Assembly: GCA_021774695.1 (NCBI GenBank)
Contig: JAJFIU010000160.1
Coordinates: forward strand, 1 to 50,551
Direction of reading: 5' to 3'
Length of the DNA stretch: 50,551 nt
From: Alphaproteobacteria bacterium
Lineage (GTDB): Bacteria; Pseudomonadota; Alphaproteobacteria; Sphingomonadales; Kordiimonadaceae
The translations under genes and the position numbers were made by a program. Below are positions 8,666 to 46,065 of the stretch, piece by piece. Each line of letters opens with the position of its first letter. Position 1 is the first letter of the stretch. The notes under the pieces were generated by a model, which ran no database searches, had not been told where the DNA came from, and saw only the letters and a list, made by a program, of their open reading frames with translations.

Positions 8666-8679
8666 TTGATTACAATCAA
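8666..8679. promoter_or_regulatory. FNR/FixK box (perfect), distal site upstream of ftsH
   Basis: TTGATTACAATCAA matches the FNR/FixK/Anr consensus TTGAT-N4-ATCAA at all ten defined positions. It lies 97 bp upstream of a second perfect box, and no -10 element is seen at the expected distance from this copy. It may be an auxiliary or repressing site for the ftsH promoter. Confidence 0.8.
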
Positions 8680-8762
8680 TGTTCGGTCGTTTTCCCGGTT
8701 TTTTTGCCTATTGAATAGCTTTTCCTGAAAAGAGTGATCTCCGCACAATGCCTGCATTGCCT

Positions 8763-8776
8763 TTGATCAAAATCAA
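8763..8776 (+). promoter_or_regulatory. FNR/FixK box (perfect) and promoter of ftsH
   Basis: TTGATCAAAATCAA matches the consensus at all ten positions. A box centred at -41.5 predicts transcription from about 8811. The hexamer GATAGT at 8798-8803 is within one base of the expected -10 position. The start codon of ftsH at 8855 then follows a short leader. This is the architecture of a class II FNR-activated promoter. Confidence 0.85.
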
Positions 8777-8854
8777 AGTGCCGATGCCTCTTAGGTTGAT
8801 AGTGTGCGGAGCGGAACGCCTTTATCTTGCCTGTGCACAGGAGAAACATGTGTC

Positions 8855-10720
8855 ATGAAAATCTCTCCGTTTACCTATATTTTGCTAATATCATCGATGA
8901 TATTGCTTTTTTCCTTCGTCAATCGTCAGTCAGCTAATGCGCCAGCATCGCAAGTTATTTCTTATAGCGAATTTAAGGAGTTGGTTCAAAACGGCCAAAT
9001 AAACGAAGCCTACTTTGAAGGAAACCAGGTTGTCGGGACGACTGTGTTATCAACCGCTGCCGGTGATACCGCTGAGACCATTACGCGAATGATTACATAT
9101 TTGCCGGGCCTTGATGATCCCGACTTCTTACCTTTATTGGAGGAAATGAACGTCAAGATTACCAGCGCGGCCCTTACCGAAAATAGTACAGGCGGTTGGT
9201 TTTCTTATATTCTTCCTTGGCTCGCCATTATGCTCTTTTATTGGTGGTTCTGGTCGCGCATGTCCGGCGGCGGCGGACTTGGGGGTCAATTAGGCGACAA
9301 GAAACTCAACCGATTTCTTGCTGGATCATCTACTGAGCAGGAAAAAGATCGCCCAAAGGTTACTTTCGATGATGTGGCCGGGCAAGAAAGCGCAAAACAA
9401 GAAGTCGAGGAGTTGGTTACCTTCCTCAAACACCCTGAACAGTACCGCATACTTGGTGCTGAATCGCCTCACGGCGTCCTGCTTGTTGGTCCCCCAGGCA
9501 CAGGTAAAACGTTACTTGCACGTGCGCTCGCCGGCGAGGCTGGTGTGCCATTTTTCGACATTTCTGCCTCCGAATTCATAGAAGTGTTCGTTGGTGTTGG
9601 CGCATCCCGGGTACGCAAAATGTTTGAAGAGGCAAAAAAACGCGCGCCGAGTATTATTTTTATCGACGAGCTGGATGCGGTTGGTCGAATGCGCGGAACC
9701 GGTGTTGGTGGTGGGCACGATGAGCGAGAGCAAACGCTTAATCAAATTCTGTCGGAAATGGACGGCTTTTCCGGCCACGAAGCTGTCATTGTTTTGTCCG
9801 CAACCAATCGTCCCGACGTATTGGATCCAGCCCTGCTGCGCCCCGGTCGTTTTGATCGCCATGTAACATTGGAACTTCCTGACCGCAAAGCTCGTGAAGC
9901 CATCCTGAAAGTTCACAGTCGAAAAGTGCCGCTCGACGCCACAGCTGATCTCGCAGTAATCGCCGCAGGAACACCCGGGTTTTCCGGTGCCGACCTGAAA
10001 AACCTGATCAACGAAGCGGCCATCGCAGCAGCCCGCGACGGCGCTGACGTCGTTGCAATGCACCATCTGGAAGACATGAAAGACAAAGTCATGATGGGCA
10101 GCGTTCGTACCCTTGCCATTCAACCAGATGAGCGGCACAGACTGGCAGTTCATGAGGCGGGTCATGCTGCGACAGCCTGGTACCTGCCGAACACCGATCC
10201 GCTCTATAAGGTTACAATCATTCCGCGCGGACATTCGCTGGGCAGTACCCATATGTTGCCGCAAGAAGAGCGACACACTCTGCCCGAAGAATATCTGACG
10301 GACAGACTAGCCGTAATGCTTGGTGGGCGCATTGCAGAAAAAATGTTCCTTGGTTCATTTTCTTCAGGTGCCGACGAAGACATTAAAGAGGCAACAAAAC
10401 TTGCCCGTGCGATGGTTGCCCGTTGGGGGATGAGCGAAGAAATAGGCCCGATCGACCTTAGGCAGTCGGAAGACCACCCCTTCCTCGGCCGAGAAATGGC
10501 AATGCCACAACATTTTTCTGAAGAAACCGCCTACCGGGTTGATCAGGCGGTTCAAACACTGCTTAAAGAGGCGTCAAGCGCGGCACAACAATGTCTGGAA
10601 TCTCATAAAAACGCAGTTGAAGATTTGATTTCAGAGCTTGAAAAACACGAACTATTGGACGAGCCCGCCATCAGGCGCAGCTTGGACAAAACGCCCGTTA
10701 AATTGGCCCCCATTAAATGA
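8855..10720 (+). CDS. ftsH: FtsH-type ATP-dependent zinc metalloprotease (accessory copy)
   Basis: Start 8855 is chosen because AGGAGA lies just upstream and the first residues form TM1; an earlier in-frame start at 8804 lies within the predicted promoter. The 621-residue protein has two N-terminal membrane segments flanking a periplasmic loop, an AAA domain with Walker A GPPGTGKT near residue 211 and Walker [12 protein letters not shown], and the protease motif HEAGH near residue 432. FtsH degrades misfolded membrane proteins and some regulators at the inner membrane. The glycine-rich linker after TM2 and the short C-terminus are normal. Placement in an FNR-box island away from the usual tilS/folP neighbours suggests a second, hypoxia-induced FtsH rather than the housekeeping one. 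That last point is inference. Confidence 0.95.
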
Positions 10721-10740
10721 CACAATCGAGCGACCTGTTA

Positions 10741-10754
10741 TTGATTAATATCGC
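10741..10754. promoter_or_regulatory. Weak FNR-like box upstream of the VIT1-like gene
   Basis: TTGATTAATATCGC matches 8 of 10 consensus positions. The predicted start of transcription (about 10789) would fall inside the coding sequence, so this site is not placed like the others. Read-through from ftsH (66 bp upstream) is a simpler explanation for co-expression. Confidence 0.25.
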
Positions 10755-10786
10755 AGCAATTGGATTATTCGAAAGGCTAGCAGTTG

Positions 10787-11506: not shown

Positions 11507-11535
11507 CTAGCGCTCGGCCATCAACGCAGAGAAAT
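11340..11535 (+). repeat. 196-bp direct repeat, copy A (end of the VIT1-like gene plus 29 bp)
   Basis: This segment is repeated at 12793-12988 in the same orientation with a constant offset of 1453 bp, no gaps and only three differences by eye, all transitions. It covers the last 167 coding bases of the VIT1-like gene and 29 bp of downstream DNA. The two copies flank the polymer-forming protein gene. Confidence 0.95.
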
Positions 11536-11578
11536 TTGCGATCATAAGTGGATTATATAGCTGTTTACTTCACTGAGT

Positions 11579-11592
11579 TTGATCACGGTCAA
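11579..11592 (+). promoter_or_regulatory. FNR/FixK box and promoter of the polymer-forming protein gene
   Basis: TTGATCACGGTCAA matches 9 of 10 positions. A centre at -41.5 predicts a start at about 11627, and TAGACT occupies exactly the -10 position (11615-11620). The gene begins at 11651. Confidence 0.78.
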
Positions 11593-11650
11593 AAGCCTGA
11601 AGAACCGCATCCTTTAGACTTATTCAATACTCAACATATAGGTGAACGTC

Positions 11651-12772
11651 ATGAATAGGTATTTGCTAATCGTAATCATGTTCATATTCGCAGCTCCTAC
11701 ATTGGCGGCGGATGAGAAAAGCGGTGTCTTTGAAATCAACAATGATCTCTTTTTAACTGGGGCGATAGCGGTTCAGGATAAAACGAACGTGGACGATCTT
11801 TTCATGTTTGGCGAAACCGTTCGTATTGAGAAGGGTATTGCAGGTTCAGCGCATCTATTCGGACGCAAAGTAATCTCCATGGGCACTATTGGCGCTGATG
11901 TCTATGCGGCAGGGATGGACGTTACGCTCAGTGGAAAAACTACAGGTGATGTCACCGTCAGCGGTTACAATGTCCAAGTGGGAGAAGTGGGCGGTGATTT
12001 GAGGGTTTCTGGAGCAAACCTCACCTTATCAGCACCTGTCTCCGGATATGCGCTCATTGCCGGGGATGAGGTAAAGATAAAATCGATAATTAAAGGCGAC
12101 GTTCACTTGAACGCCAGAGAAGTGGACTTTGCCGAAGGTGCCCGAGTTGAAGGAACTTTGACTATCTATGAAGAACAAGCCGACGATATTAAAATACCGG
12201 CTCAGGTGGTTCCTGAAGATCGGATCAAAAGGCTCAATATTTCAGAATGGTCGGAAGCAAATGCCGACATCGAAATTTGGAACTGGCAAAACTCACTGAA
12301 GCAACTTTTAACCTGGATACTCATTATCATGGGTATAGCCATATTAATTGCTGCGATAATACCGCAAAAACTTGCCAATCTACGCCGAAGCATTCTCGAC
12401 CAGCCATTTCGCAGTCTCCTATTCGGATTTCTTGCGCTTTCAGTGGCTCTGGGGTCCACGATTACGCTTATGTTGACCGGTATTGGGTTATTGCTGGCAC
12501 CTGCAACCCTGTTAATAGCGATTGCTACGGCGTTTGCAGGCTATGTGGTGGGGGCCTACGCCTTAGGGGTAGGACTATTGCTGATGATCAAACAACCTGA
12601 ACCCCGCAATATTGTTACGAGAGCCCTGGCAGCAGGCATCGGTGCACTTGTTGTTGCGCTTATTGCGTTAATACCTTTCCTTGGTTGGCTTTTTGTTATG
12701 GCCACAGCACTTGTCGGTTTGGGGGCGATTACTATTTGGCTTTTTCAACCAAGGTTTTTCGCTACTGCATAA
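11651..12772 (+). CDS. Exported polymer-forming (bactofilin-like repeat) protein with C-terminal membrane domain
   Basis: Start 11651 is preferred over the GTG at 11642 because AGGTGA lies at normal spacing before it and a signal peptide follows at once (hydrophobic run ending PTLA-AD). Residues of about 30-175 are a series of short beta-strand repeats (patterns such as GDVTVSGYNV and GDLRVSGANL), as in bactofilin-like polymer-forming domains. The C-terminal half has about four to five membrane helices. Related proteins are usually hypothetical and proposed to form an envelope-associated beta-helix. It has its own FNR box and is bracketed by the 196-bp direct repeats, suggesting it entered as a unit. 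The function is unknown. Confidence 0.85.
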   Translation: MNRYLLIVIMFIFAAPTLAADEKSGVFEINNDLFLTGAIAVQDKTNVDDLFMFGETVRIEKGIAGSAHLFGRKVISMGTIGADVYAAGMDVTLSGKTTGDVTVSGYNVQVGEVGGDLRVSGANLTLSAPVSGYALIAGDEVKIKSIIKGDVHLNAREVDFAEGARVEGTLTIYEEQADDIKIPAQVVPEDRIKRLNISEWSEANADIEIWNWQNSLKQLLTWILIIMGIAILIAAIIPQKLANLRRSILDQPFRSLLFGFLALSVALGSTITLMLTGIGLLLAPATLLIAIATAFAGYVVGAYALGVGLLLMIKQPEPRNIVTRALAAGIGALVVALIALIPFLGWLFVMATALVGLGAITIWLFQPRFFATA

Positions 12773-13423: not shown

Positions 13424-13433
13424 GGGCTTCTTT

Positions 13434-14083: not shown

Positions 14084-14097
14084 TTGATCCCTGTCAA
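14084..14097 (-). promoter_or_regulatory. FNR/FixK box and promoter of the host-attachment-like gene
   Basis: TTGATCCCTGTCAA matches 9 of 10 positions. On the minus strand a centre at -41.5 predicts a start at about 14049, and TATAAA lies exactly at -10 (14061-14056). On the plus strand no -10 is seen at the matching place, so the site probably serves the leftward gene and not the response regulator at 14204. Confidence 0.8.
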
Positions 14098-14203: not shown

Positions 14204-14944
14204 ATGAGTCGAGTATTAGTTTTAGATGATGATCCTCGCATTCGTCAGATGCTGCAACGCTATCTGACCGGCGAAGGCTTTACTGTTGCTTTGGCTGGTA
14301 CGCTCCAGCAGGCACAGCAGGCTTTTACGCAGCAATCTATCAACCTTGTACTTCTTGATCTTAAACTTGGTGCTGAAAACGGGCTGGATTTCGCGCGGGC
14401 AATCAGAGCAACGGATAAACGAACCCCCATCATTATTCTTTCCAGCAAAGATGATGTTGTTGATAAGGTTGTTGGTCTTGAAGTTGGTGCTGATGATTAC
14501 ATTGCCAAACCGTTTCATTTGCGTGAATTGCTGGCGCGGATAAGGGCGGCAATGCGCCGCGCGGAAACAACTCTTGTCGACGAAAGCCTTTTGCCTGCAG
14601 GGCCACCGCGCAGCGAAAATATATCTTTTGGAAATTGGCGTATGGCGCGCGCCAGTCGCCTAGTGACCAACCACCTTGGGCAAGAGCTACCCCTCACGTC
14701 AAAAGAGTATAAACTTTTGGGTGTGTTTGTAGAGCACCCGCGACGCGTTCTAAGCCGAGATCAACTGACAAACAAAGTCTCCGGTCGCGCCTGGAATGCC
14801 TATGACCGCAGTATTGATACGCAAATCCGGCGTTTGCGCAAAAAAATTGAGGATGACCCCGGCAATCCAAAACTCATTAAAACGGTTCGCGGTGAAGGCT
14901 ATATATTTTCTGTAGACGTTCACGTTGAGACAGATTTTTCATGA
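14204..14944 (+). CDS. OmpR-family response regulator
   Basis: The 246-residue protein has a receiver domain (acidic LDDD near residues 7-10, phospho-acceptor Asp52 in LLDLKLG, and the conserved Lys in YIAKPF) followed by a winged-helix DNA-binding domain (PLTSKEYKLLGVF through TVRGEGYIF). A GGTGAAAG sequence precedes the ATG. It lies 141 bp upstream of the hybrid kinase gene, which has its own promoter, so the pair may be only loosely coupled. The regulator would receive phosphate from that kinase or another. Target genes are unknown; the FNR boxes in this island are not OmpR-type sites. Confidence 0.93.
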   Translation: MSRVLVLDDDPRIRQMLQRYLTGEGFTVALAGTLQQAQQAFTQQSINLVLLDLKLGAENGLDFARAIRATDKRTPIIILSSKDDVVDKVVGLEVGADDYIAKPFHLRELLARIRAAMRRAETTLVDESLLPAGPPRSENISFGNWRMARASRLVTNHLGQELPLTSKEYKLLGVFVEHPRRVLSRDQLTNKVSGRAWNAYDRSIDTQIRRLRKKIEDDPGNPKLIKTVRGEGYIFSVDVHVETDFS

Positions 14945-14963: not shown

Positions 14964-14977
14964 TTGATTGGAATCAA
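14964..14977 (+). promoter_or_regulatory. FNR/FixK box (perfect) and consensus -10 of the sensor kinase gene
   Basis: TTGATTGGAATCAA matches all ten consensus positions. A perfect TATAAT occurs at 14999-15004, within one base of where a class II FNR promoter with the box at -41.5 needs it. The kinase starts at 15086. This is the clearest promoter in the window and implies that oxygen limitation controls its own sensor. Confidence 0.9.
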
Positions 14978-15085: not shown

Positions 15086-16660
15086 GTGTCTGGTGAAACA
15101 AAAACCTCTTCAAACCAAGAGGAAAGTCTCTATCAACATGACAGTGCGGTAAAAGAGGCTAAATGGCGCGCCTTAATTGATGAAGTGCCAGATGCTGTCA
15201 TAATCATCAATGAGACAGGCATTATTCAAGAAGCCAACCCGGCAACATTAAAATTATTTGGCTATGTGCCAGAGGAACTCATCAATCAAAGTGTCTCCAT
15301 TTTGATGCCTGAACCTTTTCGCACTAAGCACGGTGATTATCTAAAGCGTTATCTGGAAACTGGTGAGAAACATATTATTGGTCGCAGGCGCGAAGAGATC
15401 GCCGTTGGCAAAGACGGCAAAGCTTTCCCGGTTACCCTTTCGGTTAGCGAAGCAAGGTATGATGGTGTAAGGCTTTTTGTCGGCATCATCCATGACCTTA
15501 GCAACATAAAGACAAACGAAGAAAAACTGTTTCAGGCACAAAAGTACGAGGCAATTGCTCAACTGACGGCAGGCATTGCGCATGATTTCAACAACTTATT
15601 AACAGTTGTTCAAGGCAATCTGGAAATGTTGAGTGCCCAGGTTTCCAGCGATGCCGGCCACGAAATTTTGGCGGAAGTATTAGACGCCATTGACGACGGC
15701 AGCCATCTGGTAAAGCAACTGCTGGCGTTTGGTCGCAAACAGGTATTGAAGCCTGATGTCATTAATATCAACCAACTGGTTCGAGATACGCTGCGACTGC
15801 TTCGGCGGACCATAACCGAAACCATAGAAATTCACGATACTCTTGCTAGAGAACTTCCTTTGGTGAAAGTGGATCCTATCCAACTCGAAAACGCTTTGAT
15901 GAATCTGGTGATTAATTCCCGCGATGCGATCGCTGAACATGGTCAGATATTTATTGAAACAAGTGTGGTTTCCGCAGCAGATTTACCACCGAACATACCA
16001 ATAGATAGCCTGCATGAATTATATGTTTACATAGCGGTGCGAGACAATGGATTAGGTATACCCCAAGACGTATTGGATCATGTTTTTGAACCATTCTTTT
16101 CAACCAAAAAAACCAGTAAAGGTTCTGGCCTCGGCCTCAGTATGGTACAGGGTTTTATCAAGCAATCCGGCGGCGAAATATCAATTGAAAGTGAGCTTGA
16201 TCGCGGCACGATAGTATCGCTTTATCTGCCATGCCTTGATGATAGCGGCACAGTTTCCTCTGATACTTCCTCTGACAACAAAGGGTATGAAAGCGGCAAC
16301 GGCGAATTGATCCTGCTCGTTGAAGATGACGCAAGGGTCAGGCGCGTAAATTCACGGCGCCTTGCAAAAATAGGCTATGAAGTCCTAGAGGCTAAAAACG
16401 GCAAACAAGCGCTGGAAATTCTGGCTGCGAATCCCGCCGTAAATCTGCTATTTTCAGACATTGCAATGCCCGGCGGCATGCGCGGCCATGAACTGGCAGA
16501 TCAGGCGTGCCGCCTATTGCCCCATCTTAAAGTTCTTTTGACCACAGGTTATGCTGAAGAACATGCCACCTCAAACCTGCCCCGCTATAGAGTTTTAACA
16601 AAACCCTACAGCGTGGAACAGCTTGCCAAATATCTGCGAGAGGTGCTGGGCGAGCAATAG
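15086..16660 (+). CDS. Hybrid sensor histidine kinase with FixL-like PAS domain
   Basis: The GTG start follows AGGAGGTAACAGC. The 524 residues read PAS (about 25-140), HisKA with phospho-acceptor His166 in AHDFNN, HATPase (about 265-385, with N, G1 and G2 boxes) and a C-terminal receiver with Asp458. The PAS domain matches the FixL heme-PAS pattern. MPEPFRTKHGDYLKRY places His82 at the proximal heme-ligand position, Arg88 at the FixL Arg206-equivalent, and Arg102 (20 residues after His82) at the distal Arg220-equivalent. FixL kinases are inhibited by bound O2. No membrane segment is seen, so it is probably cytoplasmic. Heme binding is inferred; some relatives of this PAS group do not bind heme. 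The fused receiver suggests a phosphorelay or self-regulation. Confidence 0.9.
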   Translation: MSGETKTSSNQEESLYQHDSAVKEAKWRALIDEVPDAVIIINETGIIQEANPATLKLFGYVPEELINQSVSILMPEPFRTKHGDYLKRYLETGEKHIIGRRREEIAVGKDGKAFPVTLSVSEARYDGVRLFVGIIHDLSNIKTNEEKLFQAQKYEAIAQLTAGIAHDFNNLLTVVQGNLEMLSAQVSSDAGHEILAEVLDAIDDGSHLVKQLLAFGRKQVLKPDVININQLVRDTLRLLRRTITETIEIHDTLARELPLVKVDPIQLENALMNLVINSRDAIAEHGQIFIETSVVSAADLPPNIPIDSLHELYVYIAVRDNGLGIPQDVLDHVFEPFFSTKKTSKGSGLGLSMVQGFIKQSGGEISIESELDRGTIVSLYLPCLDDSGTVSSDTSSDNKGYESGNGELILLVEDDARVRRVNSRRLAKIGYEVLEAKNGKQALEILAANPAVNLLFSDIAMPGGMRGHELADQACRLLPHLKVLLTTGYAEEHATSNLPRYRVLTKPYSVEQLAKYLREVLGEQ

Positions 16661-16675: not shown

Positions 16676-17386
16676 TTAATGAAGTACGCTCGATTGCGCC
16701 ATGCGTTCCAGCGACGGCAGATCCAAAATGGTGATCTCGTGGCTATTTCTAGACGTAATGATTGCCCGACGCTTGAAGAAGCTGAGAACACGGCACACGG
16801 TTTCCTGTGTCAGTCCCATGTAATCGGAAATATCAACACGAGACATTGGCAATTCAATAACCTGGTCAGCAAAGCCCATATCAACGCGTTTATTGTAAAA
16901 ATCTAATAGGAAACTTGCTATCCGTTCCTTGGGGCGTTTTCGTCCCAGAGAAATCATATGATCTATTTGTTTTTCCTGCTCATTATGAACACAGCTGAAT
17001 ACAAATTTCGTCAGCTCTGGTGATTGCCCCATGACAGCATGCAGTTGCGAAATTGGGTAACATAATATGGTGGTCTGAGTGACGGCTTCTACTGAATAGA
17101 AAGAGGCAAATTCAAAGGGTAGACCAATTATATCACCAGCGCCAAAAAACCCAATGACCTGACGTCTGCCATCAGCGAGAAGTTTTGATGTTTTCACGGT
17201 GCCTGAAACAATCTCATACACATGCTTCACGTCGTCTTCTTCATGCAGGATAGTGCTGCCTTTAGAAAGTTTTCGCTTTATGCCTGTAAGTGCCAGCATT
17301 TGTTTCGAGTTTGCCACATGTGCAGCAGAAGCCAATATACCTTCAGGTTGACCGAAGTAATTTGACGTTGGACTAGCAATATTCAT
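16676..17386 (-). CDS. FixK/FNR-type Crp-family transcription regulator
   Basis: The 236-residue protein has a cyclic-nucleotide-binding-like domain (about 30-145) and a C-terminal HTH. The recognition helix TQETVCRVL keeps the Glu and Arg (E195, R199) that read TTGAT half-sites in FNR and FixK. The N-terminus lacks the Cys cluster that holds the FNR iron-sulfur cluster, so it is FixK-like and would not sense O2 that way. A Cys (C198) replaces the usual Ser inside the recognition helix, a possible redox switch. Its stop is 15 bp from the convergent kinase stop. It is the best candidate to bind the boxes spread across 8.6-46 kb. No FNR box was seen before the gene; instead there is a tandem repeat and a separate palindrome. 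Confidence 0.9.
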   Translation of the reverse strand: MNIASPTSNYFGQPEGILASAAHVANSKQMLALTGIKRKLSKGSTILHEEDDVKHVYEIVSGTVKTSKLLADGRRQVIGFFGAGDIIGLPFEFASFYSVEAVTQTTILCYPISQLHAVMGQSPELTKFVFSCVHNEQEKQIDHMISLGRKRPKERIASFLLDFYNKRVDMGFADQVIELPMSRVDISDYMGLTQETVCRVLSFFKRRAIITSRNSHEITILDLPSLERMAQSSVLH

Positions 17387-17398: not shown

Positions 17399-17442
17399 AT
17401 CGTTACAGTTGCCTGTGTGAATCGTTACAGTTGCCTGTGTGA
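17399..17442 (-). repeat. Exact 22-bp tandem duplication just upstream of the FixK-like gene
   Basis: Bases 17399-17420 and 17421-17442 are identical. The repeat ends 13 bp before the start codon, with the AGGGG ribosome site between. Each copy contains GTTACAG, sharing TTACA with the palindrome at 17512-17528. It could be a duplicated operator or a leader element affecting translation. Confidence 0.93.
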
Positions 17443-17511
17443 AAAAGAACTCGGCAATGAGGGGATACTGTCAGGCTATTGTAGCCATGATATGCCAAGC
17501 GTATGACAGTT

Positions 17512-17528
17512 TGTGACAAATTGTTACA
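17512..17528. promoter_or_regulatory. 17-bp imperfect palindrome (TGTNACAANTTGTNACA) upstream of the FixK-like gene
   Basis: TGTGACAAATTGTTACA is symmetric except at the three variable positions. It lies about 130 bp upstream of the FixK-like start. It resembles a Crp-superfamily site but has one base too many between the half-sites for classical CRP, and it is not an FNR box. The binding protein is unknown. Confidence 0.45.
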
Positions 17529-17612: not shown

Positions 17613-18434
17613 TTAGTTACAAATGAAAAGCGGAATATCAGATTTCTGCAATATCTCTCGTGTCACACCGCCAAAAATAAATTCCCGCAACCGCATGTGC
17701 CCGTATGCACCCATCACGATAAACTCGGCTCTGTTTGAATGTGCAACATTCAGCAGCTCTTGAGCAATAGTACCCTCCGGTATACGGCTGAGGGCATCAA
17801 CCTGGAGACCGTGTCTCACAAGGAAAGGCGCTATATCCAAGCCGGGAAGTTCTTTTGGGTTATCTTCCCCCACTTCAACAACAATAATTTTGGGCGCCGC
17901 TTTTAACATGGGTAGCGCGTGCCTGACAGCATGCGCCGCCTCCTGAGAACCGTCCCATGCAATGAGCGCAGCGTCAGTACCAAGTGGGGCCGAACATTTG
18001 GTTGGCAATGCGAGAACCGGCAAACCGTTTGCAATCGTTAAATCGCTGGCAAGGGCCCATGCATTCTTTCCGCTCGGTAGCTCACGGTTATCGATGCTGA
18101 TAATTGTCACATCGGCTATACGAGCCTGTTCACCTAATATGGTAACGGCGTCACCAATTTCTCCTGTCCATTCCCACGGCGGGCCCGGATCAGGCCAATG
18201 AGTTTCAAATGTATGTCGGGCTTCTTTCGAAATATCAGTCCATTGTTCTACCACCGTATTAATGAAACCATCAGCTACAAAATAGCCTTGAGAATAAGGC
18301 AGATAATTGCTCAAAAGCGGTGTGATGTGACTTGCTATCACATGTGACCCATATTTCTCAGCAAGCGCCAGCACTGTCGCAATATGATTGCTGAGATGTT
18401 CACCCTGTTCCACATTAAAAAGAAGCGTTTTCAT
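17613..18434 (-). CDS. Universal stress protein, UspA family (two-domain length)
   Basis: The 273-residue protein is about twice the size of a single Usp domain. The C-terminal domain has the ATP-binding signature G-x2-G-x9-G (GAYGHMRLREFIFGG then VT). The N-terminal half is more degenerate, with HITPLLSN after the first strand. Two-domain Usp proteins bind ATP and support survival during growth arrest and oxygen limitation. An AGGA ribosome site precedes the ATG. An FNR-like box lies upstream on the right side of the gene. Usp genes are frequent FNR/Anr targets in proteobacteria, which supports the island's theme. Confidence 0.92.
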   Translation of the reverse strand: MKTLLFNVEQGEHLSNHIATVLALAEKYGSHVIASHITPLLSNYLPYSQGYFVADGFINTVVEQWTDISKEARHTFETHWPDPGPPWEWTGEIGDAVTILGEQARIADVTIISIDNRELPSGKNAWALASDLTIANGLPVLALPTKCSAPLGTDAALIAWDGSQEAAHAVRHALPMLKAAPKIIVVEVGEDNPKELPGLDIAPFLVRHGLQVDALSRIPEGTIAQELLNVAHSNRAEFIVMGAYGHMRLREFIFGGVTREILQKSDIPLFICN

Positions 18435-18494: not shown

Positions 18495-18508
18495 TTGATC
18501 AAAGTCAT
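18495..18508 (-). promoter_or_regulatory. FNR/FixK-like box upstream of uspA
   Basis: TTGATCAAAGTCAT matches 8 of 10 positions. Leftward transcription from about 18460 would give a 26-base leader to the uspA start. The -10 (CATAGA or TAGACA near 18470) is weak. The same site could also face the rightward cassette starting at 18651. Confidence 0.6.
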
Positions 18509-18650: not shown

Positions 18651-19469
18651 ATGCAGCGAGAGAGCAAAAGTTGGGAGTGGCATGACGGCAATGGGCCGGT
18701 TATCGGAATTGCTTTGCATGCAGGCCACGAAATACGCGGTGATTTGCGGCCGATTCTGGCCATTGATGAAGAAACGAGACTGCGTGAGGAAGACCCATAT
18801 ACAGACCAATGGGCTCGGTCTTGTGGCGCTTGGCTTGTTGTAAACCGTTCACGTTTTGAATTGGATTTAAACCGGCCACAAGATCAAGCAATATATTGCA
18901 CGCCGGACCAAAGCTGGGGTCTCAAGGTTTGGTCCTCTTCTTACCCAGCTCAATTATTCGCCAAAATTTACAAAGAACATACGCGTTTTTATCATGAATT
19001 AGACAATTATCTGGAACGTTTTGTCCGACGTTTCGGCGCCTTCGTCATTCTGGATGTGCACAGCTATAATCATCGGCGGGAAGGGCCAAACACTGCTCCT
19101 GAAAACCCTGCGTTCAACCCGGGTCTTAATGTTGGCACAGGCAGCCTGGATCGTAGCTATTGGGCGCCGCTCATCGATGGATTCATCGACGACATGCGTG
19201 GCTCAAACTATCGCGGAAAGCCTATGGACGTGCGGGAGAATATAAAATTCCGCGGCCGGTATCTGGCGGAACATGTTCACCGCAAGTTTCCGGGTGTGGG
19301 TTGCGTACTCGCGCTTGAGTTCAAGAAAACCTTTATGGATGAATGGACCGGCATACCCGACATGGACGCCGTCGCTGAAATAGAAAGCGCACTCCGCTTT
19401 TCGATCGCTGGCCTTCAAAATAGTCTGATCACACATTACGGCTGCATTAGGCATAAAAATGCCGGATAA
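18651..19469 (+). CDS. N-formylglutamate amidohydrolase family protein
   Basis: The 272-residue protein shows the FGase family pattern: HAGHEIRGDLRP near the N-terminus, EEDPYTDQW, the NRSRFELDLNRP segment, and LDVHSYNHRR in the middle. The classical enzyme releases formate from N-formyl-glutamate in histidine breakdown, but no hut genes are present. Here it overlaps a DUF1704 peptidase gene by 11 bp and is followed by an ATP-grasp ligase, so it more likely acts on an amide made or trimmed by those partners. Zinc-binding residues are presumed among the conserved His/Asp/Glu. The ribosome site is weak. Substrate is unknown. Confidence 0.88.
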   Translation: MQRESKSWEWHDGNGPVIGIALHAGHEIRGDLRPILAIDEETRLREEDPYTDQWARSCGAWLVVNRSRFELDLNRPQDQAIYCTPDQSWGLKVWSSSYPAQLFAKIYKEHTRFYHELDNYLERFVRRFGAFVILDVHSYNHRREGPNTAPENPAFNPGLNVGTGSLDRSYWAPLIDGFIDDMRGSNYRGKPMDVRENIKFRGRYLAEHVHRKFPGVGCVLALEFKKTFMDEWTGIPDMDAVAEIESALRFSIAGLQNSLITHYGCIRHKNAG

Positions 19470-21351
19470 TCACATGGAAAGCACCAAACCAGACCGGATA
19501 GATGAATTGCTGTCCAATCTGGTATCGGGCGTTGCCATTGACGAAATCGTTGGTGAGACCGGTTCTCTACACCTGGATAAACCTCATCCTTATCTCTGTG
19601 TGCACAGACGCACTTCAGAAGACCAAACTCACGGTGCATACCGCTTGCTTGCGGGTATGGGCTCGGTTTTTCTTATGCCTGAAACCGCAGATGGCATGGA
19701 CGCAAGAGTATCTTGGGTTCACCATATTGCAGCGATGATGGTTGATACTTTCGGAGCATTTCTGCTGGTAGAAATATGGCCCAAAAAAGCGCAAATGCCA
19801 GCCGAAGCAATAGAAAAAAAGATTAATTTCCACATCCATACTTCCGACCGCAGCGTCGAAAATACCGTTCTCCAAGCTTTGGAAGAAGCAATACTTAGTC
19901 ATGGTTGGGGCGGTTTTATACCTCGCTGCACTGTTAGCTATGAACTGTGTCCAGCGCCTGACGGACAGGAATCGCTCATGTCGGTCGTCAATGTCGATAA
20001 CAAGCGTCGTTTTTACATAGGAATTGAAGTTGATGCGGTTTATCTGGAACCCGGAACGGATACTATTAGGCCGGAGGTTTTACGGTCTGTCGGTACTAAC
20101 TTTTCATATTGTCTGAAACAAGCCATCTTTGCGTTTGCACAAAGTAAAAGCACGCACAAACCCCAGCACTATCACCAACTGGGATCGCGAATTTTTACTG
20201 ACTCGGCTGTGCAGTCAGACATCGTTCTTACCGAAATTGGTAAGTCGGTAGATCTCGTTTTATACGCGACACCTGTCAACACGGCGCAAGCGTGGAATAT
20301 TTTTCAGCACACTGGTTACAAAAAAGAGCCTGAGTTTCACTATCGACCATTGACCGCGCATGAAGGAAAGCTCAAGCGGGCGTTATATAATGCGCCGATA
20401 GACGATGTGGAAGATCCGGCGTTGCATTTTGTCTTTGCCGAAAGGCGCATCGAGCTTGATCGCCAAATTACCATGCTCAGCGATAGAGGAAGACCCGAGT
20501 TTCTATTGGGAAGTCAGCAAATCTTCCCTTGGCCCGCACTCCCATTGCTGGAAAACGCCAAGGCGTTGATACGGGACATCGAACCTACGCCTTCCTTGGA
20601 GGCGCATGAGATTTTCATCTCCGCTGAAACATTGGCAATTCATGCACATAAAATGTTGCGAGACATGGGGACCGAACGCTCACTTGAAGCAAAAGTAGAC
20701 TTACGCGACGACCTGCCCGGAATTATGGTTTCCGACGGTAATTTATTGATTGGCCGCGATGCAAAATTTTCGGAAAAACGAATTGAAGCGGTTCTCAATC
20801 ATGAAATTGGCACCCATATTTTGACACACCACAATGGTGCCGCACAACCGTTCACAAGCCTTCAAGTGGGTTTCGCCGGATATCAGGCACTTCAGGAAGG
20901 ATTAGCGATTATTGCTGAATATTTATCTGGCGGTCTGAGCCAAACCCGCATCAGGCAGATAGCCGGTCGCGTGGTGGCCGTACATTCGGTAATCCACGGC
21001 GCGACCTTTCTGGATACGTTTAACCAATTACATGATCAACACGGTTTTGCCGCTTACTCGGCATTCATAACTACTATGCGCGCCCATCGCAGCGGCGGCT
21101 TCACAAAAGACATTGTATATTTGCAGGGTGTGACAGAAGTGTTGGATCTATTGGGCACTGGGCATCAATTGGAAGACTTGCTTGTGGGAAAATTTGCCGC
21201 TTCTCATGTCGATATTATTGAGGAACTGAAGTGGCGGGAAATTTTGCGCCCCTGCAGTATTTTGCCGCCTTATTTAAATGACGCTCTAGCGCGTGACAGG
21301 TTGAAAGATTTAACCAAAGGGCGGTCTCTTATTGAATTACTTGGAGATTAG
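19459..21351 (+). CDS. DUF1704 (QEGLA motif, MATCAP-like) zinc metallopeptidase
   Basis: The 630-residue protein has the metal motif HEIGTH (H448, E449, H453), an HExxxH form, followed by QEGLA (Q479-A483) whose Glu is the probable third ligand. This is DUF1704, often named 'flavohemoglobin expression-modulating QEGLA motif protein'. The eukaryotic members (MATCAP) remove C-terminal tyrosine from tubulin, so a carboxypeptidase-type activity is plausible. The first 350 residues or so are a separate domain without a clear match by eye. The start overlaps the FGase gene by 11 bp, though an ATG at 19474 is also possible. The ATP-grasp gene begins 2 bp after the stop, so the three genes are tightly coupled. 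Confidence 0.9.
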   Translation: MPDNHMESTKPDRIDELLSNLVSGVAIDEIVGETGSLHLDKPHPYLCVHRRTSEDQTHGAYRLLAGMGSVFLMPETADGMDARVSWVHHIAAMMVDTFGAFLLVEIWPKKAQMPAEAIEKKINFHIHTSDRSVENTVLQALEEAILSHGWGGFIPRCTVSYELCPAPDGQESLMSVVNVDNKRRFYIGIEVDAVYLEPGTDTIRPEVLRSVGTNFSYCLKQAIFAFAQSKSTHKPQHYHQLGSRIFTDSAVQSDIVLTEIGKSVDLVLYATPVNTAQAWNIFQHTGYKKEPEFHYRPLTAHEGKLKRALYNAPIDDVEDPALHFVFAERRIELDRQITMLSDRGRPEFLLGSQQIFPWPALPLLENAKALIRDIEPTPSLEAHEIFISAETLAIHAHKMLRDMGTERSLEAKVDLRDDLPGIMVSDGNLLIGRDAKFSEKRIEAVLNHEIGTHILTHHNGAAQPFTSLQVGFAGYQALQEGLAIIAEYLSGGLSQTRIRQIAGRVVAVHSVIHGATFLDTFNQLHDQHGFAAYSAFITTMRAHRSGGFTKDIVYLQGVTEVLDLLGTGHQLEDLLVGKFAASHVDIIEELKWREILRPCSILPPYLNDALARDRLKDLTKGRSLIELLGD

Positions 21352-21353
21352 CA

Positions 21354-22397
21354 GTGGAATTGGCTTTTGTTATAAACAGTGTGGCACAGGAACTGACAGG
21401 ATACACAACTACACACTTGGCTCTAGCAGCCATAAAGCGCGGCCACCGTGTTTGGTATATTGAACTGGGATCATTCACCCTTGACCGGGACGAAATGGTG
21501 CACACTGTCGCGACAAGGCCGCCGCGCGCGAATTACCGTTCTGCAAAAACACTGCTTGAAGACCTCAAATCGCCCAAAGCAATACGAGAGCGTATCACAA
21601 TCGATACACTTGATGTTCTCATGTTGCGCTACGACCCTGCGCAGGAGATAGCGGCTCATCCATGGGTATCCGCGGCGCCGCTTTTTTTTGCACGGTTAGC
21701 TCTGCGGCACAAAGTCATTGTACTCAATGACCCCAAAGGGTTGCGGCAAGCCGCCAATAAACTGTATCTGGAATTATTCCCCCGTTGGTTGAGGCCCCGC
21801 GCCCTGGTTACCCGGGACCATAAAGACATTCTAAGCTTTCTGGAGCAAGAAGGCGGCACAATGGTCATCAAACCACTTATGGGGTCTGGTGGTCATAATG
21901 TGTTTTTGGTGCGGCCTGAAGATGCGCCTAATCTTCATCAAATAATTGATGCTGTGTTGAGCGACGGATATGCTTTGGCGCAAGAATATCTTCCCGACGC
22001 GCAGCGCGGCGACATTCGATTATTTCTAATGAACGGCCAGCTTTTGGAGCAGGACGGTAAGGTTGCAGCACTCTACCGACATCAAAGCGGCGGCGATATG
22101 CGCGCAAATCTAACTGCCGGCGGTTTTGCGTCAAAAGCGCATCTTGAGGATATCGTGCTGGATATGGCAAATGCAGTGCGATCACGTTTGGTAAAAGACG
22201 GGATGTTTCTTGTCGGGCTTGATATAGCAGGCAGTAAACTGATGGAAATTAATGTCTTCAGCCCAGGCGGTCTTGTTGGGGCTAGCAAACTCATGAAGGT
22301 AAACTTCATGGAGACCGTTCTTGATGCATTAGAATATAAGGTGAGCTTGGCACAGCGAGACCACAATCTCGCAAACTGGGAGTTAGCTACTCTGTAA
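21354..22397 (+). CDS. ATP-grasp ligase, glutathione-synthetase/RimK-like
   Basis: The GTG start is preceded by GGAG at 7 bp and lies 2 bp after the DUF1704 stop. The 347-residue protein has an N-terminal Rossmann-like domain, the segment LNDPKGLRQAANKLY, a nucleotide-binding GTMVIKPLMGSGGHNV, and the metal/acidic segment MEINVFSPGG typical of GshB (EIN-x-SP-G). Such enzymes join a carboxylate, activated as acylphosphate, to an amine. A true GshB would normally sit with gshA or be about 315 residues, so this is more likely a specialised amino-acid or peptide ligase acting with the upstream peptidase and amidohydrolase. Substrates are not visible. Confidence 0.9.
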   Translation: MELAFVINSVAQELTGYTTTHLALAAIKRGHRVWYIELGSFTLDRDEMVHTVATRPPRANYRSAKTLLEDLKSPKAIRERITIDTLDVLMLRYDPAQEIAAHPWVSAAPLFFARLALRHKVIVLNDPKGLRQAANKLYLELFPRWLRPRALVTRDHKDILSFLEQEGGTMVIKPLMGSGGHNVFLVRPEDAPNLHQIIDAVLSDGYALAQEYLPDAQRGDIRLFLMNGQLLEQDGKVAALYRHQSGGDMRANLTAGGFASKAHLEDIVLDMANAVRSRLVKDGMFLVGLDIAGSKLMEINVFSPGGLVGASKLMKVNFMETVLDALEYKVSLAQRDHNLANWELATL

Positions 22398-23454: not shown

Positions 23455-23468
23455 TTGACCGTGATCAA
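23455..23468 (-). promoter_or_regulatory. FNR/FixK box and promoter of the CaCA exchanger gene
   Basis: TTGACCGTGATCAA matches 9 of 10 positions. Leftward transcription from about 23420 is predicted, with TATTCT (23433-23428) within one base of the -10 position. It forms a divergent pair with the perfect box at 23528. Confidence 0.78.
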
Positions 23469-23527: not shown

Positions 23528-23541
23528 TTGATCGTGATCAA
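23528..23541 (+). promoter_or_regulatory. FNR/FixK box (perfect) upstream of nfeD
   Basis: TTGATCGTGATCAA matches all ten positions. It predicts transcription from about 23576, though the -10 (TAGTGT near 23563) is weak. Because the box lies inside the longest open frame of the nfeD gene (from 23495), it argues that translation starts downstream of it. Confidence 0.82.
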
Positions 23542-26696: not shown

Positions 26697-27051
26697 CTCA
26701 CTTCCTCCAAGGCTTGTTTTTGGTGAATAATCTACTCAACCGAACGACCCAACAGTGAATGCAAACATAGCATCACCACTATGGCCGCGCTGAATGGACT
26801 TCGTCAAAGCAGCGGTATGGTTGTAAGCGGTGTAACAATCGGGACATTGACCGAAATCAACCCACCTGTGCGTAGACGATAGTAGAGTGGCAAATGATAT
26901 CAATTAGGCAAACTGCCGTTAACAGATAAGCATCGTTTATGAAGACGAAACATGAAGTTGTTCTATTCTTCTGCGATATCATGCTCAGGGCCGTCCCGGT
27001 CATTGGCAACGGGAAAATTGCACCAAAATCTGTCCACCAGAGAATGAGAGC
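26697..27051. other. 355-bp divergent intergenic region between the FNT gene and the acs-pdh operon
   Basis: No gene is supported; short frames here lack ribosome sites. The only clear element is the FNR box at 26847-26860. The leader of the acs gene would be about 157 bases if transcription starts at the position that box predicts. No strong hairpin or repeat was noticed. Confidence 0.6.
26847..26860 (+). promoter_or_regulatory. FNR/FixK box of the acs-pdhABC-acp operon (may also serve the FNT gene)
   Basis: TTGACCGAAATCAA matches 9 of 10 positions. Rightward, TAGAGT at 26883-26888 is exactly at the -10 position of a promoter with the box at -41.5. Leftward the matching position lacks a usable -10. 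Confidence 0.7.
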
Positions 27052-34919: not shown

Positions 34920-34933
34920 TTGACCAACGTCAA
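34920..34933 (-). promoter_or_regulatory. FNR/FixK box and promoter of the formate dehydrogenase gene
   Basis: TTGACCAACGTCAA is a symmetric variant with 8 of 10 consensus positions. Leftward transcription from about 34885 is predicted, with TTTAAT (34898-34893) within one base of the -10 position. The leader would contain the GGAG of the TTG start. Confidence 0.72.
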
Positions 34934-35173: not shown

Positions 35174-35187
35174 TTGATGGTGATCAA
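35174..35187 (+). promoter_or_regulatory. FNR/FixK box (perfect) and promoter of the coiled-coil protein gene
   Basis: TTGATGGTGATCAA matches all ten positions. TAAGAT at 35210-35215 is exactly at the expected -10, giving transcription from about 35222. The gene starts at 35303. Confidence 0.85.
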
Positions 35188-41761: not shown

Positions 41762-41775
41762 TTGACGCCGATCAA
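41762..41775 (-). promoter_or_regulatory. FNR/FixK box and promoter of ppsA
   Basis: TTGACGCCGATCAA matches 9 of 10 positions. Leftward, TATAGT (41740-41735) lies within one base of the -10 position for a box at -41.5, giving transcription from about 41727 and a 33-base leader. Confidence 0.82.
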
Positions 41776-44432: not shown

Positions 44433-44521
44433 GTGGTTCCACCTCGACTATTCTCCGCATGTAACCTCACCATCGTTTCAATATACTATAGATAAGCATG
44501 ATCAAATGTAGCGATATGTAA

Positions 44522-44535
44522 TTGACACCGACCAA
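44522..44535 (-). promoter_or_regulatory. FNR/FixK-like box upstream of the P-type ATPase gene
   Basis: TTGACACCGACCAA matches 8 of 10 positions. A -10 at the -41.5 geometry is weak; TATAGT at 44490-44485 would put the box nearer -50. Assigned by position and similarity to the other boxes. Confidence 0.5.
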
Positions 44536-44611
44536 AACCCTATACCCAAGCTTCATCTGGTGAAGTTCAGGTTTTCTCTTGAACAGAGGAAAATCTGTTT
44601 TAATAGAGCTA

Positions 44612-44947
44612 TCATTTCTGTTTCTGATTACTTTCCATTGTTTGCAAAATTACCTGCTGTATATCCTCTGGCTGCTCACCAACGGCTTCGGCCAAAGAGC
44701 GCAGTTTATGTCGCAAACCATGAAGTTGATCAATCAACGACAATATTATGGGAATTGATTCAGCATTGATTGAAAGATCAATTTGCAGGTTGAGGATAAG
44801 CTGCAAGCGCACGATATCAATGTCTGCAAAATAAGCGCGGCCCTCTGTCTGTTTCGGGTTTATCCACCCTTCGTCGATACACATATAGAGATGCTCTGGG
44901 CTAAGCCCTTCAACTTTGGCAATAACGTCAGCTTCAGTAAAAACCAT
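44612..44947 (-). CDS. cbpM: Chaperone modulator CbpM-like (MerR-type HTH)
   Basis: The protein is about 111 residues. The ATG at 44947 overlaps the last base of the CbpA stop (TGATG); a GTG 3 bp earlier is equally possible. It has an N-terminal helix-turn-helix-like part (FTEADVIAKVEGLSPEHLYMCIDEGWI) and a helical C-terminus, matching CbpM, which binds the J-domain of CbpA and inhibits it. Position directly after cbpA is the usual arrangement. There is no DNA-binding evidence beyond the fold resemblance. Confidence 0.88.
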   Translation of the reverse strand: MVFTEADVIAKVEGLSPEHLYMCIDEGWINPKQTEGRAYFADIDIVRLQLILNLQIDLSINAESIPIILSLIDQLHGLRHKLRSLAEAVGEQPEDIQQVILQTMESNQKQK

Positions 44948-45885
44948 CACTGGCCTCCTTCGAATTTTTGCCGCACGTCATGAGAGTGCTTTTCTCGCCA
45001 AGACTTGAAAAAGTTTTTGATATCGTCATCCAAAGTTTCCGGTAGCACAATCTTGAGCGTGACCCGTTGGTCTCCAGCCGCCTGGTTTTTACCAGCTTTG
45101 ATACCTTTACCTTTTAGCCGCAAGGTCTGGCCGCTGCTGGAACCAGCAGGAATATTCATCGATACCTTGCCGTATAGTGTTGGCACATCTATCTTTCCGC
45201 CGAGCACGGCCTCGTCCAACGTGATCGGCAGCTCAAGTAAAATATTTTTCTTGTCGCGGCTAAAATAGGGATGCGCGCCGATTGTTACCTTGATAAGAGC
45301 ATCACCGTTCGGACTGTCAGCATGACCCGGCAGACCTTTTCCTTTAAGGCGTAGTATTTGATTGTCATTGATGCCAGCAGGAATGGAAACATCAAGAGTA
45401 ACACCATCTGGCATGGTAACTCGTTTTTTCGCCCCCAACGCAGCGTCAAGGAAATCAACCTGAAGGCTGTATTGTATGTCTGCGCCTTTTAACGGTCGGT
45501 TAGCGCCTCCATACCCTTGTCTCCCACTTTTAGCATGGCCAAAAAGCTGCTCAAAAAGGTCGCTTTCGTTGGCAAAATCGGAAAAGCCGCCCGTATTATA
45601 ATACTGGTGCTGCGCGCCGGCCCCTGCGTGAGAGCGATAAGTTTGATGCGGCTGTTTTTCAGCGCCGGACATATCTATTTCTCCCCGATCAAATCGGGCG
45701 CGCTGTTCACTATCTTTCAGAAAGTTGTAAGCTGCCGAAACAGTCTTAAAACGTTTCTCCGCACCGCTGTCACCAGGATTGAGGTCAGGATGCAGTTTTT
45801 TGGCAAGGCGGCGATACGCAGCTTTGATTTCTTTGTCTGAGGCATCTGGTTTGACGCCTAAGGTTTCATATGGATTTTCGCTCAC
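44947..45885 (-). CDS. cbpA: DnaJ-class co-chaperone CbpA
   Basis: The 312-residue protein starts at GTG with GGAGAAAAG. It has a J domain with the HPD motif (KKLHPDLNPGD), a Gly-poor linker, and two C-terminal substrate-binding domains (VDFLDAALGAKKRVTMPDG; ILLELPITLDEAVLGGKIDVPTLYG), without the zinc-finger region of DnaJ. That makes it the CbpA type. It stimulates DnaK ATPase and handles misfolded proteins in stress or stationary phase. Its partner cbpM overlaps at the 3' end. An FNR-like box with a good -10 lies upstream. Confidence 0.94.
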   Translation of the reverse strand: MSENPYETLGVKPDASDKEIKAAYRRLAKKLHPDLNPGDSGAEKRFKTVSAAYNFLKDSEQRARFDRGEIDMSGAEKQPHQTYRSHAGAGAQHQYYNTGGFSDFANESDLFEQLFGHAKSGRQGYGGANRPLKGADIQYSLQVDFLDAALGAKKRVTMPDGVTLDVSIPAGINDNQILRLKGKGLPGHADSPNGDALIKVTIGAHPYFSRDKKNILLELPITLDEAVLGGKIDVPTLYGKVSMNIPAGSSSGQTLRLKGKGIKAGKNQAAGDQRVTLKIVLPETLDDDIKNFFKSWREKHSHDVRQKFEGGQ

Positions 45886-45966
45886 CTTTTCTCCAATCTA
45901 CATAACCAGAGCGCACGTTGAGCGCACTGAAGTAGCGCTAGTTTACGAAACTACGGACTGGCGGCC

Positions 45967-45980
45967 TTGACTTTGCTCAA
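45967..45980 (-). promoter_or_regulatory. FNR/FixK-like box and promoter of cbpA-cbpM
   Basis: TTGACTTTGCTCAA matches 8 of 10 positions. Leftward, TAAACT (45945-45940) lies within one base of the expected -10. It is paired with a rightward box 85 bp away in the same intergenic region. Confidence 0.65.
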
Positions 45981-46051
45981 AACTCCTCTCGCCAATCCGC
46001 ACTACTATAGGCCTCAGGTTTGCAGCAGGATGCCAAAAGGAAGGCTGGTTA

Positions 46052-46065
46052 TTGACGAGGGTCAA
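46052..46065 (+). promoter_or_regulatory. FNR/FixK-like box and promoter of the nucleotide-recycling operon
   Basis: TTGACGAGGGTCAA is a symmetric variant with 8 of 10 positions. GAGAAT (46087-46092) is within one base of the -10 for a box at -41.5, giving transcription from about 46100. The first gene starts at 46127. Confidence 0.7.

What the first reader, a model, noticed from the sequence alone, without database searches (positions are those of the whole stretch)
8666..46065. A dense FNR/FixK-box regulon covers the whole stress island
Seen directly: fifteen boxes of the TTGAT-N4-ATCAA type with at least 8 of 10 positions, at 8666, 8763, 11579, 14084, 14964, 18495, 23455, 23528, 26847, 34920, 35174, 41762, 44522, 45967 and 46052. 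Five are perfect; with equal base use one perfect match is expected about once per million bases. All but one (23528) lie outside genes, and that one is inside only if an upstream nfeD start is used. Ten or more have a -10-like hexamer within a base of the class II position (box centre -41.5). None occurs in the glucan region before 8.6 kb. Known: this is the FNR/FixK/Anr consensus. Inference: nearly the whole 8-50 kb block is one oxygen-responsive regulon encoded with its own candidate sensor and activator.
Basis: partly seen in the sequence, partly recalled or inferred. Interest (0 to 1): 0.87.

Follow-up and report, generated by a model that had tools for sequence, protein, structure and literature searches.

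The report
Self-wired low-oxygen stress gene island
A roughly 43-kilobase block of survival genes in a Kordiimonas-type bacterium carries the switch sites, the switch protein and the likely oxygen sensor together, wired much like the oxygen circuit of root-nodule bacteria.

Summary
The boxes are real and dense. Strict sites (TTGAY-N4-RTCAA): 46 in the 3.8-Mb genome, 13 in this window, 29 times the density elsewhere (P about 3e-14), all 13 outside the genes called. -10-like hexamers peak at the class II distance. Box spacing before several genes is conserved in a sister genome.

The regulon reading holds, with corrections. The activator is FixK-type, without FNR's cysteine cluster. The sensor is a hybrid kinase with a FixL-like PAS. 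fixK has no good box but a K-box-like element, the FxkR operator of rhizobia. This matches the hFixL-FxkR-FixK cascade (PMC7888657, passages). Similar islands with perfect K-boxes lie on Ensifer and Sinorhizobium plasmids. Several target families are FixK2-dependent in Bradyrhizobium (PMC9104804, passages).

The K-box pattern is not enriched genome-wide. A sister species' kinase lacks the haem histidine. Three other CRP/FNR proteins could share the boxes. Nothing is expression-tested. New member of a known kind; a recognition-helix cysteine in the activator is a clade oddity.

The parts
7474..7487 (.).
8666..8679 (.). Perfect box, distal, upstream of ftsH-like gene; pair with 8763 kept in sister genome G018 (39013, 39100); poor -10 at class II position
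8763..8776. Perfect box, proximal, upstream of ftsH-like gene; likely start ATG 8855, box centre 85.5 nt away, same offset in G018 (counted by hand)
11579..11592 (.). Box upstream of orf376 (11642-12772, no Pfam match)
14084..14097 (.). Box between host-attachment/baeRF12-like gene and response regulator; 70.5, 71.5 and 69.5 nt before the host-attachment gene in window, G018 and G028
14204..14944 (+). OmpR-type response regulator, candidate FxkR
14964..14977 (.). Perfect box upstream of the kinase gene, with TATAAT at the class II position
15086..16660 (+). Hybrid sensor kinase: FixL-like PAS + HisKA + HATPase + receiver (candidate hFixL)
16676..17386 (-). FixK-type CRP/FNR activator, no N-terminal cysteine cluster, Cys198 in recognition helix (ETVCR)
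17399..17442 (.). Perfect 22-bp tandem duplication between the fixK start and the K-box-like element; role unknown
17502..17528 (.). K-box-like element upstream of fixK, GTNACA-like repeats with 10-bp period; candidate FxkR operator
17613..18434 (-). Universal stress protein gene
18495..18508 (.). Weaker box (2 mismatches) before Usp and FGase; box letters identical and Usp spacing within 1 nt in G018
18651..22397 (+). FGase - MATCAP/QEGLA - glutathione-synthetase-like gene run
23455..23468 (.). Box with a -10-like hexamer at class II spacing towards the Na/Ca exchanger gene
23528..23541 (.). Perfect box before nfeD; 86.5 nt from ATG 23621, the in-frame start shared with G018 (same distance there), or 47.5 nt from ATG 23582, which G018 lacks
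26847..26860 (.). Box between FNT transporter gene and acyl-CoA ligase / E1-E2 gene run
34920..34933 (.). Box before formate dehydrogenase alpha gene (32206-34866)
35174..35187 (.). Perfect box in the gap between the formate dehydrogenase gene and the HlyD-MacB-ABC genes; target unclear (663.5 nt from HlyD, 314.5 from FdhA)
41762..41775 (.). Box before PEP-synthase-like gene (39265-41694), TATAGT at class II position
44522..44535 (.). Weak box (2 mismatches) before Ca-type P-ATPase gene; not conserved in G018
45967..45980 (.). Weak box (2 mismatches) 88.5 nt before cbpA; G018 has a 1-mismatch box at the same distance
46052..46065 (.). Box 68.5 nt before the AMP/thymidine-phosphorylase family gene; same spacing in G018 with a different N4 core
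46127..50128 (+). Phosphorylase - PRPP-synthetase-like - beta-CASP MBL gene run; same gene families by name as the FixK2-dependent bll3117-3116-3115 operon of Bradyrhizobium

Best explanation
The block is a self-wired low-oxygen survival regulon of the hFixL-FxkR-FixK type. When oxygen falls, the hybrid kinase with the FixL-like PAS (15086-16660) becomes active and phosphorylates the OmpR-type response regulator (14204-14944). That regulator binds the K-box-like repeats at 17502-17528 and switches on fixK. FixK, which has no FNR-type sensor cluster of its own, binds TTGAT-N4-ATCAA boxes centred near -41.5 and activates island genes for chaperones, proteases, stress proteins, ion pumps, formate and fermentation enzymes, PEP synthase and nucleotide salvage, plus targets elsewhere. 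Boxes before the kinase and response-regulator genes close a feedback loop. Shown by sequence: the boxes, their clustering, geometry and conservation, the domain makeup and the K-box-like site. Inferred: oxygen as the signal, phosphotransfer, DNA binding, activation.
For: Density 29 times background and all 13 strict sites outside called genes. Clustering around fixK also in G018 (7 of 32 sites in 26.4 kb) and G028 (7 of 21 in 17.5 kb), intervals chosen after seeing the sites. Class II -10 peak. Box-to-start distance within 1 nt of G018 for HostAttach, RR, hFixL, Usp, CbpA and AMPphos and equal for FtsH and NfeD at shared in-frame ATGs; in G028 within 1 nt for HostAttach and 6 nt for RR. The kinase PAS matches FixL best, with the aligned His and Arg residues. 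The relaxed K-box GTNACA-N4-GTNACA is at 2 distinct places in the genome, one before fixK, and precedes fixK in the fetched regions of G018, G028 and G051. Perfect K-boxes lie between FixK and RR genes on Ensifer and S. meliloti plasmids. The cascade, K-box and anaerobox are described in PMC7888657 (passages). FixK2-dependent genes of Bradyrhizobium include Usp, host attachment, DnaJ, ppsA and the phosphorylase/MBL operon (PMC9104804 and PMC6515984, passages).
Against: G018's kinase has Tyr, and the 1553-aa kinase ORF of G051 has Gly, where the haem His should be. The K-box pattern is not enriched in the genome: its backwards control gives 3 forward and 3 reverse matches against 2 and 1, and loose K-box sites in the window are at chance level, 35 against 28.2; only the position before fixK speaks for it. 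G051's PPS, Usp and RR genes and G028's PPS lack a good box within 250 nt. Same-genus genomes G004 and G017 have 17 and 16 perfect boxes yet no FixK match at E 1e-25, so total box number does not track FixK. The Ca-ATPase box is weak and not conserved. No expression or binding data.
Confidence: 0.82

Rival explanations
1. The boxes are real, but another CRP/FNR protein in the genome (the NIT-domain CRP fusion on C54, the ETFSR-type protein on C60, or the cysteine-bearing one on C26) is the main or a co-regulator, so the signal is nitrate, NO or redox rather than oxygen alone.
For: Three further CRP/FNR proteins were found; their contigs hold 2 (C54), 4 (C60) and 3 (C26) strict sites. They carry ET[FL]SR helices; that DNR-like proteins read nearly the same box is recalled.
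Against: The island itself carries FixK, the kinase, the response regulator and the K-box-like site. In G018 and G028 box clusters also surround fixK. The other proteins lie on other contigs.
Confidence: 0.15
2. The circuit is FixK-like, but the input is mainly redox or oxidant stress through protein cysteines, not oxygen through haem.
For: FixK carries Cys in the DNA-reading helix; the sister species' kinase lacks the haem His; FixK2 of Bradyrhizobium is inactivated by oxidation of C183 next to DNA (PMC9104804, passages).
Against: The window kinase PAS keeps the His/Arg pattern and matches FixL at E 7e-29. FixK2 C183 is at another position from Cys198 (alignment).
Confidence: 0.1
3. The boxes are chance matches in AT-containing spacers.
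For: 60 sites pass the loose 8-of-10 rule against 30 expected, so about half of the loose sites may be chance.
Against: Strict sites 13 of 46 in 1.3% of the genome, 13 of 13 outside called genes, conserved spacing, class II peak; backwards control 0 in the window.
Confidence: 0.01

Closest known systems
hFixL-FxkR-FixK cascade of Rhizobium leguminosarum / R. etli (PMC7888657, passages; PMC4999443, passages)
   Same: Hybrid FixL-like kinase, non-FixJ response regulator, K-box before fixK, FixK acting on TTGAT-N4-ATCAA boxes, regulator genes clustered.
   Different: Kordiimonas-type host with no nifH match above cut-off in a 90.7% complete genome; the K-box-like site has a mismatch and a third repeat; FixK has Cys in the recognition helix.
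FixK2 regulon of Bradyrhizobium diazoefficiens, genes bll4634 to blr4655 and bll3117-3115 (PMC9104804, PMC6515984; passages)
   Same: FixK2-box genes for Usp, host attachment protein, DnaJ, ppsA, Hsp20, and a phosphorylase/PRPP/MBL operon; the host attachment box is listed at -69 (window centre 70.5; how the paper counts was not checked).
   Different: Bradyrhizobium uses FixLJ, and its redox Cys (C183) is at a different position; in the window these families sit beside the sensor and activator. Match is by gene names, not by alignment.
RR-FixK-PAS kinase stress islands on Ensifer adhaerens and Sinorhizobium meliloti plasmids (L072, L125)
   Same: RR next to a FixK-like gene and a PAS kinase, perfect K-box in the spacer, Usp, P-type ATPase, MBL; L125 also has adaptor-FtsX-ABC and Hsp20 genes and 6 strict boxes in 24.7 kb.
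   Different: FixK there is ETVSR, 32% identical in Ensifer; gene content differs in part. A rhizobial plasmid region without this trio, L126, has 3 strict boxes in 24.7 kb, so the box surplus there is modest.

Membership tests
FixK-type CRP/FNR regulator | CRP fold with cNMP-like domain and Crp HTH | tested here: met
   Pfam PF00027, PF13545; best solved match FixK2 4i2o, E 6e-28
FixK-type CRP/FNR regulator | No N-terminal FNR-type cysteine cluster | tested here: met
   Cys only at 109, 132, 198
FixK-type CRP/FNR regulator | NCBIfam FixK equivalog cut-off (300 bits, Caulobacter type) | tested here: not met
   130.6 bits against cut-off 300: related, not filed as a Caulobacter-type equivalog
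FNR (iron-sulphur oxygen sensor) | Cysteine cluster that holds 4Fe-4S | tested here: not met
   not filed as FNR
hFixL | Haem PAS with proximal His and distal Arg of FixL | tested here: met
   Window kinase aligned to FixL: His, Arg at +6 and +20 (residue roles recalled; haem itself not shown); G018 and G051 lack the His
hFixL | HisKA, HATPase and C-terminal receiver | tested here: met
hFixL | Oxygen-controlled phosphorylation | not testable with these tools
   needs purified protein
FxkR | OmpR-type (recalled), non-FixJ response regulator beside fixK/hfixL | tested here: met
   no record named FxkR was aligned
FxkR | K-box GTTACA-N4-GTTACA before fixK | tested here: met
   17513 with 1 mismatch, the only such site in the window; relaxed form at 2 places in the genome, not above its backwards control
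FxkR | Binds the K-box | not testable with these tools
   needs gel shift
FixK anaerobox regulon | Enriched TTGAT-N4-ATCAA boxes at class II position before target genes | tested here: met
FixK anaerobox regulon | FixK-dependent low-oxygen induction | not testable with these tools
   needs expression data

The most novel reading that the evidence does not exclude
In this clade of the window's order FixK has gained its own thiol switch. A cysteine sits in the DNA-reading helix (ETVCR, where FNR and FixK2 have serine), so oxidants would directly block base reading. In parallel the upstream kinase is losing haem sensing (haem His replaced by Tyr in the sister species). The oxygen circuit would be moving from a haem sensor to a redox-sensing activator.
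Probability: 0.15. Interest if true: 0.62.

Novelty: new member of a known kind. Interest (0 to 1): 0.48.

Why it matters
It carries a wiring plan described in symbiotic nitrogen fixers into a Kordiimonas-type genome with no nifH match above cut-off. That fits the view that hFixL-FxkR-FixK is a general low-oxygen survival module that keeps company with its target genes; one of the two rhizobial plasmids with a similar island is typed conjugative. The regulon can be predicted gene by gene, and the recognition-helix cysteine and the His-to-Tyr change in the sensor are directly testable.

Tried and rejected
My first idea, that Cys198 is the FixK2 redox cysteine C183, was wrong. In the solved-structure alignment FixK2 position 183 falls in the preceding PM-x-R segment and Cys198 aligns with Ser199 (L195 and C183 placement checked in PMC9104804 passages).

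In one search I had typed an nfeD start for G018 (52103) and a kinase start for G028 (42793) that one search shows are not start codons. The nfeD distance of 47.5 in G018 and the G028 kinase distance are therefore withdrawn. The shared in-frame nfeD ATG gives 86.5 nt in both genomes.

Total box number per genome as a proxy for FixK failed: same-genus genomes without FixK reach 16-17 perfect boxes. R. phaseoli and Rhizobium sp. NLR16a plasmid hits of the response regulator are not beside a FixK/PAS-kinase pair. The Azospirillum FixK hit lies beside a short response regulator but has no K-box in the 16.7 kb fetched. Rfam and tRNA scans of the window gave nothing. The genome-contig scan with the FixK alignment gave only two relatives. 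Structure prediction was not run. Paper searches for Kordiimonas with FixK/FixL/FNR (10 of 112 shown) or with oxygen-stress terms (8 of 68 shown) listed no paper that holds the word Kordiimonas (listings only). I did not search further for priority.


Full report
WHERE IT IS. The window is contig C68 of a 3.80-Mb genome in 172 contigs, 90.7% complete. The same-genus relative G018, which has the syntenic island, is the contig titled uncultured Kordiimonas sp. (CANNEK010000007.1, same length 77,848 and same match position). The same-family relative G028 is Pseudokordiimonas caeni. So the host is a Kordiimonas-type bacterium. No nifH match reaches the family cut-off (best 26.3 bits).

THE OBSERVATION. 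All 15 boxes are present and five are perfect. Under the stated 8-of-10 rule there are 60 sites in the window against 30.3 expected, so the list of 15 is a chosen subset, and nine loose sites lie before 8.6 kb. The stricter form TTGAY-N4-RTCAA removes the doubt: 46 in the genome, 13 in the window, backwards control 16 in the genome and 0 in the window. Density is 0.257 per kb against 0.0088, ratio 29, P = 2.8e-14. All 13 lie outside my list of 36 genes, which covers 87.6% of the window, with the NfeD and DUF4136 starts moved downstream. A 99-kb sample holds no strict site, but it was picked after the sites were known and is no independent control.

GEOMETRY. Twenty-two box-gene assignments were made from gene arrangement alone. 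The -10-like score (recalled E. coli weights) peaks at 21 and 22 nt after the box, ranks 1 and 2 of 56 offsets; 0 of 2000 random intergenic sets reach it. Seven of the 22 assignments have only 2 of 6 matches there (7474, 8666, 14084 towards the RR, 18495 towards FGase, 23455 towards NfeD, 35174, 46052 towards CbpA). The negative leader for ftsH comes from a wrong start: ATG 8855 with an AGGAG site is shared with G018.

CONSERVATION. The fetched G018 contig has a shorter island. At tblastn E 1e-20 it shows no match for VIT1, orf376, the Na/Ca exchanger, FNT, the ligase/E1/E2 genes, formate dehydrogenase, HlyD, MacB or PPS, and only a 37% ABC match (the rest of that genome was not searched for them). 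Distances from box centre to start agree between window and G018: HostAttach 70.5/71.5, RR 113.5/113.5, hFixL 115.5/116.5 (aligned GTG), Usp 67.5/66.5, CbpA 88.5/88.5, AMPphos 68.5/68.5, often with different N4 cores. FtsH gives 85.5/85.5 and NfeD 86.5/86.5 at the shared in-frame ATGs (counted by hand). In G028: HostAttach 69.5, RR 107.5. Against this, the Ca-ATPase box is not conserved in G018, and G051 genes and G028's PPS mostly lack good boxes. G018 also has a strict box before an Hsp20 gene. Clustering repeats: 7 of 32 strict sites in 26.4 kb of G018 (P 1e-9) and 7 of 21 in 17.5 kb of G028 (P 9e-12); these intervals were chosen after seeing the sites.

THE CIRCUIT. The protein at 16676-17386 is FixK-like (best solved match FixK2), with Cys109, 132 and 198 only and no N-terminal cluster. 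The kinase at 15086-16660 has PAS, HisKA, HATPase and receiver domains. Its PAS matches FixL at E 7e-29 with His, Arg(+6), His(+14) and Arg(+20) aligned to the FixL pattern (residue roles recalled). The response regulator is OmpR-type. This is the makeup of hFixL-FxkR-FixK (PMC7888657, passages; that FxkR is OmpR-type is recalled), whose operator before fixK is GTTACA-N4-GTTACA. In the window GTGACA-AATT-GTTACA lies at 17513 before fixK and is the only site with at most 1 mismatch. The relaxed form GTNACA-N4-GTNACA occurs at two distinct places in the genome. That count is no enrichment: the backwards control gives 3 and 3, and loose K-box sites in the window are at chance level. The weight lies in its place: it also lies before fixK in the fetched regions of G018, G028 and G051, with one more elsewhere in G051. 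fixK itself has no good FixK box within 250 nt. Perfect K-boxes lie in the FixK/RR spacers of Ensifer adhaerens (L072) and S. meliloti (L125) plasmid islands, which also hold Usp, P-type ATPase and MBL genes, and in L125 an adaptor-FtsX-ABC run and Hsp20. L072 and L125 were found through the response regulator, so their RR neighbourhood is not independent. L125 has 6 strict boxes in 24.7 kb; L126, a rhizobial region without the trio, has 3.

TARGETS. In Bradyrhizobium, FixK2-dependent genes include Usp bll4644 (-72), host attachment bll4645 (-69), DnaJ blr4653, ppsA blr4655 (-47) and thymidine phosphorylase/MBL bll3117-3115 (-74) (PMC9104804 table, passages); several are in the microoxia tables of PMC6515984 (passages). 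The match is by gene family names; I did not align those proteins. Outside the window 33 strict sites remain: 19 overlap an ORF of at least 60 aa and 14 do not. Sites near gene starts precede Usp (2), PPK2 (2), a DsbD-like gene just before ccoN, OmpW, a radical-SAM gene and an S30AE (HPF-type) gene, among others (20 of 29 candidate genes were scanned).

THE CYSTEINE. One search examined 61 loci, the best-ranked ones of two capped searches plus three others; L069 and L070 (duplicates) and L026 (motif not readable) were dropped, leaving 58. Seven have Cys in the helix (ET[VL]CR). All 7 have an RR or kinase match in the locus (L122 only a 28% kinase hit), against 2 of 51 with Ser (L072, fetched through its RR, and L124). 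Most loci reach about 1.5 kb each side and some are cut by contig ends, so absence is weak evidence. The window and six relatives from four families lie on one side of a branch with 99/96 support; L122 lies apart (bootstrap not settled, root at midpoint). A relaxed K-box is found before 5 of these 7 (window included); L039 and L048 have none, and one Ser-type, L046, has one. The Cys is mostly one lineage's trait, role unknown. The kinase haem His is Tyr in G018; in G051 the aligned residue is Gly, but that ORF is 1553 aa long and lies about 10 kb from fixK. Haem sensing cannot be assumed for all.

VERDICT. The regulon stands up to the sequence tests I ran and is a new member of the hFixL-FxkR-FixK kind. 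It is accessory in its genus: 17 of 18 other same-genus genomes, some incomplete, have no such FixK at E 1e-25. Oxygen control, FixK binding and phosphotransfer remain inference. The mends after one search did not change my odds.

Noticed in passing
G000:C54:46772-48418 (L066:8773-10419, - strand): A CRP/FNR regulator fused to an N-terminal NIT (nitrate/nitrite sensing) domain, with a strict box upstream and one overlapping its 3' end, beside MoaA-like and MFS transporter genes.
   Followed up: partly
G018:C7:43232-44806 (L051): Sister-species hybrid kinase has Tyr in place of the FixL haem His while keeping the Arg at +20.
   Followed up: partly
window 17399-17442: Perfect 22-bp tandem duplication containing GTTACAG between the fixK start and the K-box-like site; G018 shows one diverged copy.
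   Followed up: no
L125 (NZ_CP021796.1 50619-75302): S. meliloti plasmid typed conjugative carries a stress island with RR, FixK-like, PAS kinase, a perfect K-box and 6 strict boxes.
   Followed up: partly
window 46127-50128: Gene run of archaeal-type phosphorylase, PRPP-synthetase-like protein and beta-CASP MBL protein; nucleotide salvage or RNA turnover at low oxygen is a guess.
   Followed up: no
G000:C26:8606 and C115:17925: Two PPK2 polyphosphate kinase ORFs each have a perfect box with its centre 24.5-35.5 nt before the longest ORF start.
   Followed up: no
window 11642-12772: 376-aa ORF with a strict box upstream and no Pfam or NCBIfam match at E 0.001.
   Followed up: no
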